Below, one piece after another: positions 6,975 through 16,057 of a stretch of DNA of 64,000 bases. The translations under genes were made by a program, and so were the position numbers. The stretch lies in assembly GCF_002804025.1 (NCBI RefSeq), contig NZ_CP024969.1:682001-746000 (forward strand). Reading direction: 5' to 3'. The DNA is from Mesoplasma tabanidae. GTDB lineage: Bacteria; Bacillota_I; Bacilli_A; Mycoplasmatales; Mycoplasmataceae. The notes under the pieces are model-generated. The model was not told where the DNA came from, did no database searches, and saw nothing but the letters and a program-made list of their open reading frames with translations. The first letter of the stretch is position 1. Each line of letters opens with the position of its first letter.

Positions 6975-7835
6975 TTAATTTATTATATTTTCGAGAATTA
7001 AATCGCTTTTACCTAAATTGCATCTTTTACATAATGTTCATAAATTTGATAAATCTGAATTTCCACCTTTTGCAATAGGAACTTTATGATCAATATGTAG
7101 TACAAGTGAACTATCATTTTTCTTTGATTCACCGCAGACTTGACACGTTAAATTATCTCTATTAAGAATTTGAATGCGAACTCTATCACTGACAAGGCTT
7201 CTTTCATATCTTCTCCTAAATTCTTCTGAAGATCTTTTTGCTTTTTCTTTTTCGACACTTTCTAACATATCAAATATTTGTTCAAAAGTTTTAATCATAT
7301 TTTCTCTGTAACTATTTCTTCCAGCAGGTGTCACATATCCTTTTGATAAGTTAATATTGAAATCAACAGCAGGTTTCATATAATTAGAAAAATAAATTTC
7401 TTTTTCATATTTGTAAAATTTTTTAGGTTTAATTTTTGAAGTCAAGATAATTTCTAAATTTGTTTGAGCAAATGATTCATTAATTTCTTTTTCATATTCT
7501 TTTTTAAATTGTCTGTTAGCTATTATAGTTCCAACAATATTTCTAATTTGAATTTCATTTTCATATAAATAATTATAGCAAGCGCTATATAGGCAAAAAT
7601 TATCATAAGTTTTTTTACCATTAAAGTGATTGAATTGAAGCACTATGTGTCTAGCATTTAGTTCTTTAAATCTTTCTTTATAAACTGAATCAATTTCATT
7701 TCTTTTTTTTATTGCTTCGCTTAATCCAATTATTTTATCTCTTATTTTTTTAGCTTTATGAGAAAAACAAGAGGAAATTACTACTATTAAAATTAAACAT
7801 ATTAGAAGAAATCCTATAATAAATAAACTATCCAT
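6975..7835 (-). CDS. Membrane-anchored HNH endonuclease-like protein
   Basis: A 286-residue protein with one N-terminal membrane helix (about residues 3-23), a charged helical middle and a C-terminal HNH domain. The HNH domain shows CxxC (C231, C234), HIDH (H247 and H250), the Asn of 'SNLW' (N264) and a second CxxC (C269, C272), so both the metal-binding scaffold and the catalytic His are present. HNH domains cut DNA or RNA; anchoring at the membrane is unusual and suggests action on incoming nucleic acid, by inference only. It follows yebC by 25 bases and ends at a terminator. The W of 'NLWTLC' is UGA. Confidence 0.8.
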
Positions 7836-8575: not shown

Positions 8576-9196
8576 TTAAAACTCCTTTTTAATTTTTTCT
8601 ATATTTCTTATAACTTCTTCAACTTTTTCGTCTAAGTTATTATTGTTTGCATCAATAACTAAAAATGGAAAGTCATTTTTATGTTCTTGGTAGTACTCTT
8701 CATATGATTCATTTAATATTTTTCAATACTCATTATCAATACTTAATTCTGCAGATCTTCCACGTTCATTAATTCTTCTAATTGAAGTTTCATCGCTAAC
8801 TTTTAGGTAAACAACTAAATCAAATTTTAATCTATCGTTTGGATACTTTAAGTTTTCTGAAACGACATATTGGAAAAAATCACAATAAGTTTTATAATCA
8901 GTATCATCGACATTACCCATTTTATGACCTACGTTCATGAATATTGGATCTTCAATAATTGTTCTGTCAAAAATTTTGTTCTTCAAATCTTTTGCAGCAA
9001 ATAATTGTTTTGATCTTGCAGTTAACATGAATATTTGCATTCTAAAAGCATAAGCTTTGATATCTTTATAGTAATCTTCAAAGTATGGATTTTCATATAT
9101 GGGTTCTGGAAAAATTTCATAGTTTAATCTATTTGATAATTCTTGAGATATTGATGATTTTCCTGCTCCAACTGTTCCAAAAATAGCTATTTTCAT
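8576..9196 (-). CDS. Deoxynucleoside kinase
   Basis: A 206-residue salvage kinase that phosphorylates deoxynucleosides (probably dA or dG, judging from Mollicute relatives). P-loop 'GTVGAGKSS' lies at residues 7-15, the 'PEPIYENPYFEDYY' substrate segment follows, and 'FDRTIIEDPIFM' contains the DR pair. The lid region is 'RINERGRSAELSI'. Wall-less bacteria lacking de novo nucleotide synthesis depend on such enzymes. UGA encodes W in 'EYWKIL'. It lies 15 bases after rluB and overlaps the yebC ribosome-binding site. Confidence 0.9.
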
Positions 9197-9967: not shown

Positions 9968-10596
9968 TAAAACATTCCTTCATCAGATTCATCTTCAAAG
10001 ATATCTTCCTCTGAGACCATTTCTTCAGTAATTTTTATTTCTTCTTCAAAATTATTTTCTTCATCTTCATTTTTGTATGAAGCAAAATCAATTTGAGGTA
10101 ACGCTTCAAATCCACCTGTTATGTTAAATAACTTAAAGAAATTATCAGTTATTGTATAAAGGTTTGCTCCTGTTGAAGTTTTACCAACCGCTTTAATTAA
10201 TTTTTTTTGTCTTAATCTATATATTTGGTATGAACATTCAGCTTGTCTTATCAATTCAATGTCATGTTTTGAAATTGGTCCTTTATAAACAATAATTGAT
10301 AATACTTCTATACTTGAATTTGATAGTCTAGAATTATTTACTTCTAATTCTAATTTTGCAAAATATTCGTGTAATTCTGGTTTTGTTTGTAATCTATATT
10401 TGTTTTTTCCAAATTTTTGAATAGAAAAAGCACAGTCAGGATCTGAAGAATATTTTTTTTCTAACTCTAAAATAGTTTCTTGAATTGTTACTGGTCTAAC
10501 ATCTTCTAATACATTTTGTAAATCTAGTAAACTAATACCTTCATCACCATAAACAAATAATAAACCTTCAACAATAGCTTTAATATTACTATTCAT
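9967..10596 (-). CDS. scpB: Segregation and condensation protein B
   Basis: A 209-residue ScpB: two winged-helix domains ('IKAIVEGLLFVYGDEGISL' at the start; 'LSIIVYKGPISKHDIELIR' in the middle), followed by an acidic tail rich in Glu and Asp. With ScpA and Smc it forms the condensin that organises the chromosome. The start overlaps scpA by 8 bases and the stop overlaps rluB by one. Confidence 0.94.
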   Translation of the reverse strand: MNSNIKAIVEGLLFVYGDEGISLLDLQNVLEDVRPVTIQETILELEKKYSSDPDCAFSIQKFGKNKYRLQTKPELHEYFAKLELEVNNSRLSNSSIEVLSIIVYKGPISKHDIELIRQAECSYQIYRLRQKKLIKAVGKTSTGANLYTITDNFFKLFNITGGFEALPQIDFASYKNEDEENNFEEEIKITEEMVSEEDIFEDESDEGMF

Positions 10597-11422
10597 ATTC
10601 TTCTACCTCTTCTATTCTTTTTAAGACTGTTTCATCAGCAAGAGCTTCAGATGTAAATCTGAACTCTAGCGTATCATTTTTTTGATTAATAACAGCAACT
10701 TGATGCCTAACCATATCTAACACAGCTAAGAAAGTTGAAATCAAATTAATTAAGTTTAATTCGTATCCTGTGATAACTTCTTCAAGTCTTCATTCTTTGT
10801 GTTTATTTGTTTTCATAACATCAACAATTGATTTAGCAATTACTTGTGGAGAAATAATTTCATTTTGAATTGGAGCATATGCATCTTCTAAAAGCATACT
10901 TTCATCATATTCAAAATCATCATTAAAGTTTTCTGCTTTTTGCAAGATCCTTTGAAAAATTTCAGCAAATTCATCAATGCCTATGTCTAACGGATCGACC
11001 ATTAACTCATCGTTTCTGTCTGCTATAGATTGAACAAATGATTTTTTAGTTTTTGGCTTAGAATAAGTTTGTAAATACTCTTCTTGTTTATTATAAAAAT
11101 ATTCACTAACTTCTTTAATTTGACCATATTGATTAATTTGTTCAAGTAAATCTTCAAACATAAAATCATCTTGTAATTCTTCTTCATCTTTTGGTAATAA
11201 AATTCTTGACTTCATTTCAATCATTTGTGCAGCCATTACTAGATACTCACTAGCTAATTCAATATCAAGTTTTTGTTGGCCTTCAATATACTTAAGATAT
11301 TGATCAATGATTTCACTTAAATTAATTTCAAAAATATCAATTTTTTTATCTTTTACCATATTTCATAATAAGTCTAAAGGACCTGAGAAATTGGATATAT
11401 TTAATTCATCTCAATGTTGCAT
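10589..11422 (-). CDS. scpA: Segregation and condensation protein A
   Basis: A 277-residue kleisin that bridges Smc heads. The N-terminus reads MQHWDELNISNFSGPLDLLW and includes the family motif 'FSGPLDLL'; two of the W codons here are UGA. 'ASEYLVMAAQMIEMKSRILLP' (about residues 60-80) is also typical. The C-terminal winged helix that contacts the Smc head follows. TAAGGAG precedes the ATG. It comes 50 bases after the HEPN-like gene without a visible terminator. Confidence 0.94.
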
Positions 11423-11472: not shown

Positions 11473-12312
11473 CTATTTATTAACTTGATTTAGTTTTATT
11501 AACTTTAGTAATTCATCATCTTTTTTCAAATCTCTATGTATTTGAATTAAAGTTCTAGTAACTAAAATGAAAAGTAATTCAATTTCTAATGCTATGTTAT
11601 ATTTTGACTTAGGATCTGTAAAAGAATGTTCAAGATTATTTCTTAACTTTCTTATATAATGAAATGATACAGATTTGTTCAACGTTTTTAAATATTCTGC
11701 AAATGCTAATTTTCTAACTGTTGTTTTAAATAAAGGCATCGAAACAGAATCAAAGTCTTTAGTAAATATAAAACTATTTTTTACATTAACTTCTTTTAAA
11801 TTGTATTTATCAACAAAGAATACGTTAATGAACATTAGCTTATCAAATATTGAATATAAATATTTGTACATTACTAATTGATCATGAAATTCTAATTCAT
11901 TTATTCCAAAGCGTTCATTAACACTGTCATAGCATTTATTTTTTGATGACTTATTAATATAATAATTAACTATCATTTTTATTTCAGAATATATATAAAA
12001 ATCAAAGAAATAATTTTTAATTGTCATTAGTGAAAGTAAAGTTTTTAAAAGATATAAAAATTCATGCGTTTCTTTAGTTGAAACAACTTTTTTATTTGGT
12101 TTTATATCAATGTCAAGAATTCTATTATTTTTAATAAGATTAATATTTAGTCGGTGAGAAATAGTTGAGTCTTTTAAAATAATATCATCAATCATATTAG
12201 CTATAAAAAATAAAATATCATCTGCTTCAGATTGCTTAATTCTTTTATTTTTAACAATCTTAATTAATTGCTTTATTTTTTCAGAATATTGATTAAGTTT
12301 TAATTCGTTCAT
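11473..12312 (-). CDS. HEPN-like protein, possible RNase
   Basis: A 279-residue, almost all-helical protein without membrane segments. The C-terminal part holds 'RKLRNNLEHSF', an exact RNxxxH motif (R224, N225, H229) between two long helices, which is the active-site signature of HEPN ribonucleases used in toxin-antitoxin, abortive infection and rRNA-processing systems. The N-terminal half has no motif that I recognise. No nucleotidyltransferase (MNT) antitoxin lies beside it; its neighbour upstream is an unknown helical protein. Very rich in Lys, Asn and Ile. A six-residue motif can arise by chance, so the family call is tentative. Confidence 0.45.
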   Translation of the reverse strand: MNELKLNQYSEKIKQLIKIVKNKRIKQSEADDILFFIANMIDDIILKDSTISHRLNINLIKNNRILDIDIKPNKKVVSTKETHEFLYLLKTLLSLMTIKNYFFDFYIYSEIKMIVNYYINKSSKNKCYDSVNERFGINELEFHDQLVMYKYLYSIFDKLMFINVFFVDKYNLKEVNVKNSFIFTKDFDSVSMPLFKTTVRKLAFAEYLKTLNKSVSFHYIRKLRNNLEHSFTDPKSKYNIALEIELLFILVTRTLIQIHRDLKKDDELLKLIKLNQVNK

Positions 12313-12330
12313 AAAATTTCTCCCTTCTTT

Positions 12331-12900
12331 TTATTTAGCCATTATTGCAAATACATTTGCATGTCATTTATAGATTCTAATGAAAATATCATTTTGCTCT
12401 TTAAAAAAATCTTTAATCATTTCACCAGTTATTTTATTTTTTAATTGTTCATTGTTTTTGATTAAGTTTTCATTTGAAAATATTTCTATTTGTTTTTTAA
12501 TTCATTTAGTAAGGTTTAAAGCATGCTCTTTTTCTTCTATAGATAATGTTTTATTGTTAAATTTAATTTCATATTCATCTTTAATATTAGAATTTAGGTT
12601 TTGATAATTAATAACTTCTCTAAACATTGTTTCTTTCATAGTTTCTTTAAATTTTTCTTCAAAGTCATTTATTTCATTTTGTTCTATAAACAACATTCCA
12701 AATAAATCAGATTGTTTAACAAACTCATGTCCATTGTATGTTGCAATCTTCTTGACAATAATTTCAAATTTTAATAAAAGATTAGTACTAATTTTAAAAC
12801 TATATTTAGTTTCAAAGTATTTAATAAAATCGCGAAACACTTTATTATTTAGTTCTTCATTAATTTTAATATCTTTTAGTTTTTCTAAAGTATTAATCAT
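12331..12900 (-). CDS. Helical protein of unknown function
   Basis: A 189-residue charged, helical, probably cytoplasmic protein. I recognise no motif. It starts 10 bases after the MFS-like gene with AAGGGGG as ribosome-binding site and ends 18 bases before the HEPN-like gene, so these two unknown genes are cotranscribed and may work together. Two UGA codons near the C-terminus ('LTKWIKK' and 'IYKWHAN'). Confidence 0.7.
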
Positions 12901-12909
12901 GTTTCCCCC

Positions 12910-14394
12910 TTACTCAATTATTATTCTTGAGTTTATTTTTTTCTCTACTGATTGTTTTTCATATTCTGAAAAAATATGTTTAATATTTGCATAATCAACA
13001 AACTCAGCAATTATTTGATCAATTCATATTACTGTTAAAAATAAATAAATACTATTAATAAAAAATAATGAAGCTGCTGTTATTCTAATAACTTTTTTTA
13101 AGCTGTTTTCAAAAGCTATAATATTATCAATATTAATTTCAGCTATTATTGCTTGTACTGATTGATATGTAAACAGTCCCGTTTTTGTATAAACAATAGA
13201 ATTAAAAATAAGTATAACTGAAAATTGACCAATTAATAAAGCAGAAGCAACAAACCCTGTCACAGGTATTCCTCTTGATGCTCTATAGTTTCACATAATT
13301 GCAAATGCAAATCACATGTAAAATAAAACAAAATAAGAAGACCCAAAAATTAAATTAGAGATAACTATTCATATTGAACTAATTACAAACGTTGAAATTA
13401 ATAATGTTATTCCCGAAATAACAATTAGTCCATAAATTAAGTTTTTAACACCAATTTTAGGCAATAAAACTTTATATAAGAAATATCCTAATGCAAATTG
13501 ACCAAATAAAAATATAGCTTGATATTTTCTATCTAATGTTTCAAGTCATTCAATATTATCATTACTTATTTTTGAATTTGCTATAAAATACATTCTAAAT
13601 ATTGGAGATTGCACAAATCCATAAATGAGACCTAATATCAAAGTTAAAATAATTAGTTTGATTAAGGTTGATTTAGAATACTTTGCTAATTCTTCTTTTA
13701 AGACTAATTTAAACTCACCTATTTTATTTTTATTTTCTATGCCATTTCTAAAACTTATCAATAATGAAATTATTAAAAATATAATGATTAACATATTCAG
13801 CCAAACTAATTTATTTGTAGCAAAATTGTTAACATTTAGAATTCAATTACCTACAAAAGATGCAAATGTTATTACAAAACCTAATGCAAATGAAACTTTA
13901 AGTACAAACAATCTATTATATTTTTGTTCATTTAAATATAAAAAATATAGACTTTGTGATGAAATACTAATTCCTAAAATAACCGCTTGTAAAATAATAA
14001 TAATTTTAAATAGTGCACCATCACTTGAAGGAATTAATAAAAGCATACTAGCAAGAAGTGAAGCTAAAATTGAAGTTCTTATTCAAATATTTCTATTTCT
14101 TATTTTTCCTGTAAACCAAGTAGCTAATGGTTTAAGTAAAATTGCAAATAACATTGAACTACTAAATAATAATAAAACTACAGTTGTTGCAGGTGGTGTC
14201 TTATCAAAAAGATCAGTTAGTATATTTGAGTTTTCTTGAATTAAGATTGCATTTACAGTTCAGACAATTAATGTTTGAATATAAAATCAAAATAGTCTTT
14301 TTTCAACTTTTTGTTTTTTGTAAATATAATATAAAAATAAAAAACCAAAAATAATAACTGAAGGAGCAACAATAATTAAATCTCAATTGTTCAT
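12910..14394 (-). CDS. Major-facilitator-like transporter
   Basis: A 494-residue protein with about 12 membrane helices in two halves and a soluble C-terminal tail. 'KPLATWFTGKIRNR' between helices 2 and 3 looks like a degenerate MFS motif A (a loop with G, then R-x-R). No substrate can be inferred. Its ATG lies directly after the argS stop, so it shares the argS transcript. Several UGA codons split the gene under the standard code. The opposite strand has an open frame of about 200 codons (13625-14239) that is only a shadow of this gene. Confidence 0.7.
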
Positions 14395-14395
14395 A

Positions 14396-16057
14396 TTACA
14401 TTGTTTCTAATGCACTAACACCAATAACTTTAAATGCATTTTTTAGTACTTGTAAAACTGCTACAACTAATCCTAATCTTGCTTCACTTGTCGGTAAGTC
14501 TTTTTCATCAATAATTTTTGTATCTGCATAGTATGAATGAAATTGCTTACAAATTGTTTGAATATATTCACAAATTAATTGTGGTGCTCTATTTTTAGCA
14601 GCCATTTGAATTACTTGATTAAAATTGTCTAATGTTAATAACAAATCAATTTCTTTTTTATTTGACAATAAATTATTTTTTTCTAAATTCGCTTTTATAT
14701 TTTTTTGCTCTGCCTGATTCAAAATTGAATGACATCTTGCAGTTGCATATTGTGCATAATAGACTGGATTAGTTGCATTTTTTTGTTGAACTAAATCTAA
14801 GTCTAAGTCCATATGTGAACTACTTGATTTAGATGCTAACATATATCTCAGTGCATCTTTACCAACCATTTCCATAATATCAACCAATCAAACTGCAGTG
14901 CCTTTTCTCTTACTCATTTTGTATTCTTTGCCATCTTTAATTAATCTTACCATTTGAACCATTTCGATTTCTAAGATATCTGGATTATGCCCTAATAATT
15001 GAAGACCTGCTCTCATTCTTGGAATATAACCATGGTGATCTCCACCTCAAATATTAATTAGAATATCTGCTTTAGTTCTATCAATTCTAATGTTATGAGT
15101 TGCTAAGTCTGGAACAATATAAGTTAATGAACCGTCTTTTTTAATTAAAACACGATCTTTGTCATCACCAAATTGAGTAGTTTTTAATCATAAAGCTCCA
15201 TCAGTCTCATAAGTCGCATTTTTTTCTTTATATTCTTGTAAAAGTTTTTCAATTTGATTTGTGTCATACATTTCTTGTTCACTTGAGTAATGATCAATGA
15301 CAACGCCAAAATCTTTTAACTGATTTTTAATTTCTGCTAAGAAATATTCAGTAGCTTCTTTTCTAAAAATTTGATGAACTTTAGAATCAGAAATTATAGT
15401 TTCAGTAAAACTTAGACTTTTAAATTTATCACCATGTTTTTCAATCATAGTCTTAGCTAAATCATCATAGAAAGTTCCACCATATGTATTAGCTGGTTTT
15501 TCTGCTTCAATGCCTAATGCTCAAAGGTAGTGAACAAAAACAGTTACAGCCAAAATATTAATTTGATTTCCTGCATCATTTGTATAATACTCTGTTTGCA
15601 CTTCATAACCATCAAATTTTAAAACTTCTTTTAACACAGAACCTGTAACTGCATTTCTTGCATGCCCCACATGTAAAAAACCAGTTGGGTTTGCTGAAAC
15701 ATATTCAATATTTATTATTTTATTTTTATTTCCATTTTTCCCGTATGCCTCTTTTAAGGTTGAAATATTTTTAATTGTTGTTGAAAGTAATTCAGTTTTT
15801 AATTTAATGTTAATAAAACCGGGACCTGCTATTTCAATTTGATCATAGTATTCTTTTTTTATTAATTCTTGCTTAATAGAATCAGCTAATTGTATTGGAT
15901 TTTGTTTTAATTCTTTTGCGCTCATTAATGCAATAGTTGTAGAAAAATGACTGTCAATATTGTTCTTATTAATTTCAACAACTGGTTCTTTTACTATGCC
16001 CAATTTTTTAGCTACTTCTTTTAAATCTTTTTTAACTATATTAATTATGTTATCCAT
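14396..16057 (-). CDS. argS: Arginyl-tRNA synthetase
   Basis: A 553-residue class I synthetase that charges tRNA-Arg. It has an N-terminal Add1 domain, the HIGH box as '[11 protein letters not shown]' (about residues 130-140), '[14 protein letters not shown]', 'RKDGSLTY'-like sequence, a 'KMSKRKG' loop and a C-terminal DALR helical domain ('DALRYMLAS', ending ALETM). Lies downstream of a terminator that follows frr. First gene of a long unit that runs through three unusual genes to scpA. Confidence 0.96.

What the first reader, a model, noticed from the sequence alone, without database searches (positions are those of the whole stretch)
11473..14394. HEPN-like gene with an unknown helical partner and an MFS-like transporter inside the argS-scpA operon
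The 279-residue gene carries an exact RNxxxH motif (R224, N225, H229) flanked by long helices. A helical 189-residue protein lies 18 bases upstream, and a 12-helix transporter overlaps the argS end. The three genes sit tightly packed between argS and scpA. HEPN genes with a small partner often form toxin-antitoxin or phage-abort systems, but no known partner type (MNT, DUF86) is visible. A toxin locked into an essential operon would be unusual.
Basis: partly seen in the sequence, partly recalled or inferred. Interest (0 to 1): 0.6.

Follow-up and report, generated by a model that had tools for sequence, protein, structure and literature searches.

The report
Ancient HEPN ribonuclease-like gene beside scpA
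A gene thought to be a toxin is instead an old, inherited, strongly conserved member of the RNA-cutting HEPN protein group that travels with the chromosome-segregation gene scpA in Mesoplasma and most Spiroplasma relatives, so it looks like a housekeeping enzyme rather than a toxin-antitoxin system.

Summary
In detail: a 279-aa protein with an exact RNxxxH motif (R224, N225, H229) sits 18 nt after a 189-aa helical protein and 50 nt before scpA. It is a real family: 45 of 60 genomes of this bacterial family carry it (profile search), and RNxxxH is invariant in all 44 aligned members, some only about 20% identical. A predicted structure (pTM 0.89) overlays the Legionella HEPN toxin over 122 of 133 residues, in the register that puts R224/H229 on R98/H103. 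No Pfam, NCBIfam, PHROGs or PADLOC family claims it.

The toxin-antitoxin reading is not supported. The gene is followed by scpA in all 23 genomes whose scpA-linked copy I read, tracks the genera on its tree, and evolves about as slowly as scpA within the genus (dN/dS 0.05-0.10). The partner is lost and kept independently, evolves several times faster, and resembles the lid and triple-helix domains of the AAA+ ATPase RavA without the ATPase core. The transporter is the known MMSYN1_0325 family.

Best reading: a vertically inherited housekeeping HEPN endoribonuclease, co-transcribed with scpAB. RNase activity and substrate are inferred, not shown.

The parts
11473..12312 (-). HEPN-like protein, 279 aa; motif R224-N225-x3-H229; HEPN core about residues 105-264, preceded by an all-helical N-terminal part (1-100)
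   Evidence: 44-member alignment, invariant D42 E110 Q145 D157 K158 F183 S214 R224 N225 H229 F231; model pLDDT 84.5, pTM 0.89; overlay on HEPN toxins
11626..11643 (-). codons of R224 to H229, the RNxxxH motif
   Evidence: computed from the frame of 11473-12312; R, N and H invariant in 44/44
12331..12900 (-). 189-aa partner; resembles the AAA+ small (lid) domain plus triple-helix domain of RavA, without the P-loop ATPase core and without the LARA domain
   Evidence: model pLDDT 82.4; RavA 3nbx Z 9.2 over 171 residues; Pfam AAA_lid_8 in 3 of 15 members; hhalign to Spiroplasma RavA, P 2.6e-4
12910..14394 (-). MFS-type transporter, member of the minimal-cell family MMSYN1_0325 (NF043061)
   Evidence: 567.7 bits against a cut-off of 450, E 2.5e-170; a match in 57 of 60 family genomes
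10589..11422 (-). scpA (segregation and condensation protein A), constant downstream neighbour of the HEPN-like gene
14396..16057 (-). argS, upstream neighbour in Mesoplasma and close genera, not in all Spiroplasma

Best explanation
The 279-aa gene encodes an undescribed HEPN-superfamily protein of the Mesoplasma-Spiroplasma lineage that most likely works as a housekeeping, metal-independent endoribonuclease. R224, N225 and H229, with help from an upstream conserved acidic residue (E110 or D157), would form the active site, probably at a homodimer cleft as in other HEPN proteins. It is expressed as a gene of the scpA-scpB operon (its first gene in several Spiroplasma). Its natural substrate is likely rRNA, tRNA or mRNA of its own cell. 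It is not a toxin paired with the neighbouring small protein. Shown here: family, strict motif conservation, fixed place before scpA, inheritance and purifying selection. Supported by prediction: HEPN-like fold with the motif in register. Inferred: RNase activity, dimer, substrate, co-transcription, housekeeping role.
For: RNxxxH invariant in 44/44 homologues down to about 20% identity, and kept in two more distant copies (RNTWAH, RNTTYH). AlphaFold model pTM 0.89, all helical. VIA-align overlays residues 105-264 on the Legionella HEPN toxin (8yuf, Z 6.2, 122 of 133 residues; 8xdj Z 6.0; 8xeh Z 5.6). In all three the alignment ends at an offset of 126 residues, which places R224 on R98 and H229 on H103 (residue numbers from PMC11586414). 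hhalign with HepT-like proteins sets IRKLRNNLEHSF on the W..I.GLRNRIVHDY motif in register, P 0.015. A distant homologue's only Pfam match is HEPN_Cthe2314, E 0.041. scpA is the next gene in 23 of 23 genomes read with a scpA-linked copy, gaps -23 to +122 nt and often 2 nt. dN/dS 0.05-0.10, against scpA 0.05-0.07 and partner 0.20-0.33; pairwise distances correlate with rluB and scpA (r 0.79-0.84). The tree needs only the minimum of 10 changes for 11 genus groups.
Against: Foldseek gave no significant match (best E 0.38). The VIA Z near 6 is no higher than that of unrelated seven-helix receptors, and helical bundles reach such Z by arrangement alone. No curated HEPN model reaches its cut-off. 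The gene is missing from the scpA locus of the g7 genomes read, of G001/G002 and of G056, so it is not universally needed. No activity has been measured; the Legionella HEPN used for the overlay was reported to use a metal site instead of its R/H pair (PMC11586414).
Confidence: 0.5

Rival explanations
1. HEPN toxin with the 189-aa protein as its antitoxin (toxin-antitoxin pair fixed in a core operon).
For: Toxin-like order and 10-20 nt spacing in Mesoplasma; HEPN fold and motif; AT-rich genes (GC 0.20 against 0.27 for the window).
Against: Partner absent in the genomes of g8 and g10 and in G053, G057, G058 that keep HEPN; partner kept without HEPN in G001/G002. No other small gene next to HEPN in the Spiroplasma loci read, where it leads the operon. 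Slow, vertical evolution. No MNT, and the AMPylated tyrosine position is an invariant Phe (F231).
Confidence: 0.1
2. Chromosomal antiphage (abortive-infection) nuclease kept as a core gene, activated by an unknown signal.
For: Many described HEPN families with the motif act in defence or conflict (PMC3710099); the extra N-terminal helical part could be a sensor; a very distant homologue (L108) lies near a transposase-like gene.
Against: Single copy, fixed place, follows the genera, dN/dS near that of scpA; PADLOC matches only GajA for one of 44 members, a model of an AAA ATPase; no relatives in viral contigs or plasmids.
Confidence: 0.15
3. A HEPN-fold protein that no longer cuts RNA and instead binds RNA, nucleotides or ScpA, for example to tune expression or assembly of Smc-ScpAB.
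For: Constant link to scpA, with 2-nt or overlapping junctions in several genera; many invariant residues outside the motif (D42, Q145, D157-K158, S214).
Against: All three motif residues are strictly kept, as expected for a working active site; scpA is kept where HEPN has left its locus (g7, G056).
Confidence: 0.2

Closest known systems
HEPN superfamily, Cthe_2314-like (PF18730) and HepT-like (PF01934) families
   Same: All-helical, Rx4H motif with N after R, conserved acidic residues upstream; motif in register with HepT-like proteins; one distant homologue matches PF18730 weakly
   Different: No curated model reaches its cut-off; extra helical N-terminal part of about 100 residues; vertically inherited core gene instead of a patchy conflict gene
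Legionella HEPN-MNT, type VII toxin-antitoxin (8xdj, 8xeh, 8yuf; PMC11586414)
   Same: HEPN core overlays over 122 of 133 residues; R and H of the motif in the same register
   Different: No MNT partner; the Tyr of RX4HXY is an invariant Phe; fixed chromosomal place
RavA (MoxR-type AAA+ ATPase), for the 189-aa partner
   Same: Lid and triple-helix arrangement (Z 9.2 over 171 residues); sequence register with the lid of Spiroplasma RavA
   Different: No P-loop ATPase core and no LARA domain
MMSYN1_0325 MFS transporter (NF043061)
   Same: Scores well above the curated cut-off
   Different: Nothing notable

Membership tests
HEPN superfamily | Rx4-6H motif with a polar residue (N, D, H) after R | tested here: met
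   R224-N225-x3-H229 invariant in 44/44; kept in distant copies
HEPN superfamily | conserved acidic residue upstream of the motif | tested here: met
   E110 and D157 invariant; the common Ex3[KR] spacing is not present
HEPN superfamily | four-helix HEPN bundle | tested here: inconclusive
   Model overlays HEPN toxins over 122/133 residues with the motif in register, but Z about 6 equals unrelated helical rows and Foldseek E is not significant
HEPN superfamily | metal-independent RNase activity | not testable with these tools
   needs purified protein
HEPN superfamily | match to a curated HEPN profile | tested here: inconclusive
   None for the window protein; HEPN_Cthe2314 E 0.041, below cut-off, for one distant homologue
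Type VII HEPN-MNT toxin-antitoxin | adjacent MNT nucleotidyltransferase | tested here: not met
   neighbours are partner, MFS, argS, scpA; partner has no MNT match
Type VII HEPN-MNT toxin-antitoxin | Tyr acceptor in RX4HXY | tested here: not met
   position is F231, invariant in 44/44
Toxin-antitoxin pair (any type) | toxin and antitoxin inherited together | tested here: not met
   independent presence of HEPN and partner
Toxin-antitoxin pair (any type) | growth arrest relieved by partner | not testable with these tools
   bench assay needed
RavA/MoxR AAA+ ATPase (partner) | P-loop AAA+ ATPase core | tested here: not met
   189 aa, all helical, sequence match only to the lid of RavA; no AAA core match in Pfam
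RavA/MoxR AAA+ ATPase (partner) | AAA_lid_8-like small domain | tested here: inconclusive
   Pfam AAA_lid_8 in 3/15 members, best E 0.005; hhalign P 2.6e-4
MMSYN1_0325 MFS transporter | NF043061 score above curated cut-off | tested here: met
   567.7 bits against 450

The most novel reading that the evidence does not exclude
This is a previously undescribed vertically inherited HEPN ribonuclease that is part of the core RNA metabolism of near-minimal bacteria, regulated together with Smc-ScpAB. It may correspond to the single numbered gene between MMSYN1_0325 (MFS; PMC6629657) and MMSYN1_0327 (ScpA; PMC4993169) in the minimal cell, giving a function to one of its unknown genes.
Probability: 0.2. 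Interest if true: 0.75.

Novelty: new variant of a known kind. Interest (0 to 1): 0.5.

Why it matters
HEPN proteins in bacteria are known mainly from toxins, CRISPR effectors and abortive infection. A HEPN family that behaves like a housekeeping gene in highly reduced free-growing bacteria would add a candidate RNA-processing enzyme to near-minimal genomes such as Mesoplasma florum. It would also give a testable function to a gene that the Pfam, NCBIfam, PHROGs and PADLOC libraries searched here do not name.

Tried and rejected
PADLOC, PHROGs, NCBIfam and Pfam scans of the window proteins and of alignment members gave no curated family for HEPN. The GajA (E 2e-4, one of 44 members), RasGEF, TolA and PRK11130 matches were scattered over few members and not pursued. 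Sequence search of the PDB: nothing significant. Foldseek against PDB and viral models: nothing significant. PF18733 and PF18730 genome searches found no true members, so no profile-profile test against those families was possible. Class-wide profile search (395 genomes) gave only short weak matches outside this taxonomic family. Viral contigs and plasmids: none. The genome-contig scan found only 4 relatives, as it relies on strict peptide patterns, so Mycoplasma mycoides could not be tested. Literature: no paper naming MMSYN1_0326 and none holding both HEPN and Mesoplasma. Promoter scan: no excess over shuffles. The GPCR and rhodopsin rows in the VIA list were rejected as generic helix-bundle overlaps: the protein has only one borderline hydrophobic segment.

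Full report
What is there. The window is a mollicute chromosome read with code 4 (846,907-base genome). The nearest named relative fetched is Mesoplasma grammopterae, 92% identical in the HEPN-like protein. Minus-strand order: pyrH, frr, argS, MFS transporter, 189-aa partner, 279-aa HEPN-like protein, scpA, scpB, rluB.

Is the motif more than chance? On its own, hardly: RNxxxH appears in 1.7% of shuffles of this protein. Across the family it is decisive. A single-sequence search finds the gene in 44 of 60 genomes of the taxonomic family; a profile finds it in 45 of these plus one genome of another family in the order, always one match per genome. In the 44-member alignment R224, N225, H229 and F231 are invariant together with D42, E110, Q145, D157, K158, F183 and S214, although members fall to about 20% identity. 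Two very distant copies outside the scpA locus still read RNTWAH and RNTTYH.

Is it a HEPN fold? No curated model claims it. Foldseek found nothing significant. VIA-align on Foldseek's candidates placed Legionella HEPN toxin chains (8yuf Z 6.2, 122 of 133 residues, rmsd 3.6; 8xdj Z 6.0; 8xeh Z 5.6) among rows that are mostly seven-helix receptors. Z of 6 is not proof for a helical bundle. The register adds weight: model ends 264, 262 and 258 pair with chain ends 138, 136 and 132, all offset 126, and the motif of the Legionella protein is R98 and H103 (PMC11586414), exactly R224 and H229 minus 126. The residue-by-residue alignment was not available, so an internal gap between the motif and that end is not excluded. 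hhalign against HepT-like proteins aligned the motif in register with P 0.015 but low probability. One distant homologue's only Pfam match is HEPN_Cthe2314, E 0.041. Together these make HEPN likely, not proven.

Is it a toxin-antitoxin system? In 23 of 23 genomes whose scpA-linked copy I read, scpA is the next gene on the same strand, with gaps from -23 to +122 nt. In the Spiroplasma loci of genus g8 read in detail the gene leads the run, facing an ispG gene, with about 90-190 nt between the two and no small gene beside it. argS, MFS and partner are not constant neighbours. The protein tree keeps every genus together with the minimum of 10 changes, some groups with modest support, and pairwise distances follow rluB and scpA (r 0.79 and 0.84). 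Between Mesoplasma species dN/dS is 0.05-0.10, near scpA (0.05-0.07); the partner has 0.20-0.33 and MFS 0.12-0.19 (synonymous sites are near saturation, so these are rough). The partner is missing from g8, g10, G053, G057 and G058, which keep HEPN, and present in G001 and G002, which lack HEPN. This is not the behaviour of a toxin and its antitoxin. F231 stands where MNT-regulated HEPN toxins have the modified tyrosine, so that mode of control is not available.

What the partner is. Its model (pLDDT 82.4) matches RavA (3nbx) over 171 residues, Z 9.2, but generic helical proteins score alike over shorter stretches. Independent support: Pfam AAA_lid_8 in 3 of 15 members and an hhalign match, P 2.6e-4, to the lid of the RavA homologue of Spiroplasma, itself certain (E 1.4e-76 to RavA; AAA_lid_8 E 6e-21). 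RavA-type ATPases are found in most g4-g10 genomes and not above cut-off in g1, g2, g3, g11 and g12, where most genomes hold the partner. The partner thus looks like a RavA-derived lid and triple-helix fragment without ATPase.

Losses. The g7 genomes read have scpA without HEPN in front of it; G056 has lost transporter, partner and HEPN together, leaving a 415-nt gap between argS and scpA; G001/G002 lack HEPN. The gene is therefore strongly kept where present but replaceable.

How it probably works. By the established chemistry of the superfamily (PMC3710099), R and H with a nearby acidic residue cleave RNA without metal. I infer an RNase acting on the cell's own RNA, expressed with scpAB. The surroundings (argS, frr, rluB, tsf, rpsB) are rich in translation genes, which favours rRNA or tRNA as substrate, but this is only suggestive.

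Minimal-cell link. The MFS gene belongs to the MMSYN1_0325 family (PMC6629657) and ScpA is MMSYN1_0327 (PMC4993169), so by the numbering one gene, 0326, lies between them in Mycoplasma mycoides. Whether it is this HEPN, the partner or something else could not be tested.

Noticed in passing
window 12331-12900: The 189-aa partner looks like a RavA lid and triple-helix fragment; RavA-type ATPases occur in Spiroplasma genera g4-g10 but not above cut-off in Mesoplasma and its nearest genera, which mostly hold the fragment instead; g9 and G004 hold the fragment and two RavA-type matches.
   Followed up: partly
L108:1312-1987: Very distant HEPN homologue (RNTTYH) in another family of the order, 7 nt upstream of a 64-aa small ORF and near a transposase-like gene: a possible mobile or toxin-like offshoot.
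   Followed up: partly
L109:8845-9259 (G056): Transporter, partner and HEPN are all gone between argS and scpA, leaving a 415-nt gap.
   Followed up: yes
window 8576-9196 and L070, L071, L058, L062: The deoxynucleoside-kinase-like gene occurs as two adjacent copies in some relatives but once in the window.
   Followed up: no
window 6975-7835: HNH-endonuclease-type gene between yebC and a membrane protein, present in some Mesoplasma (L071, L073) and absent in others (L070, L072).
   Followed up: no
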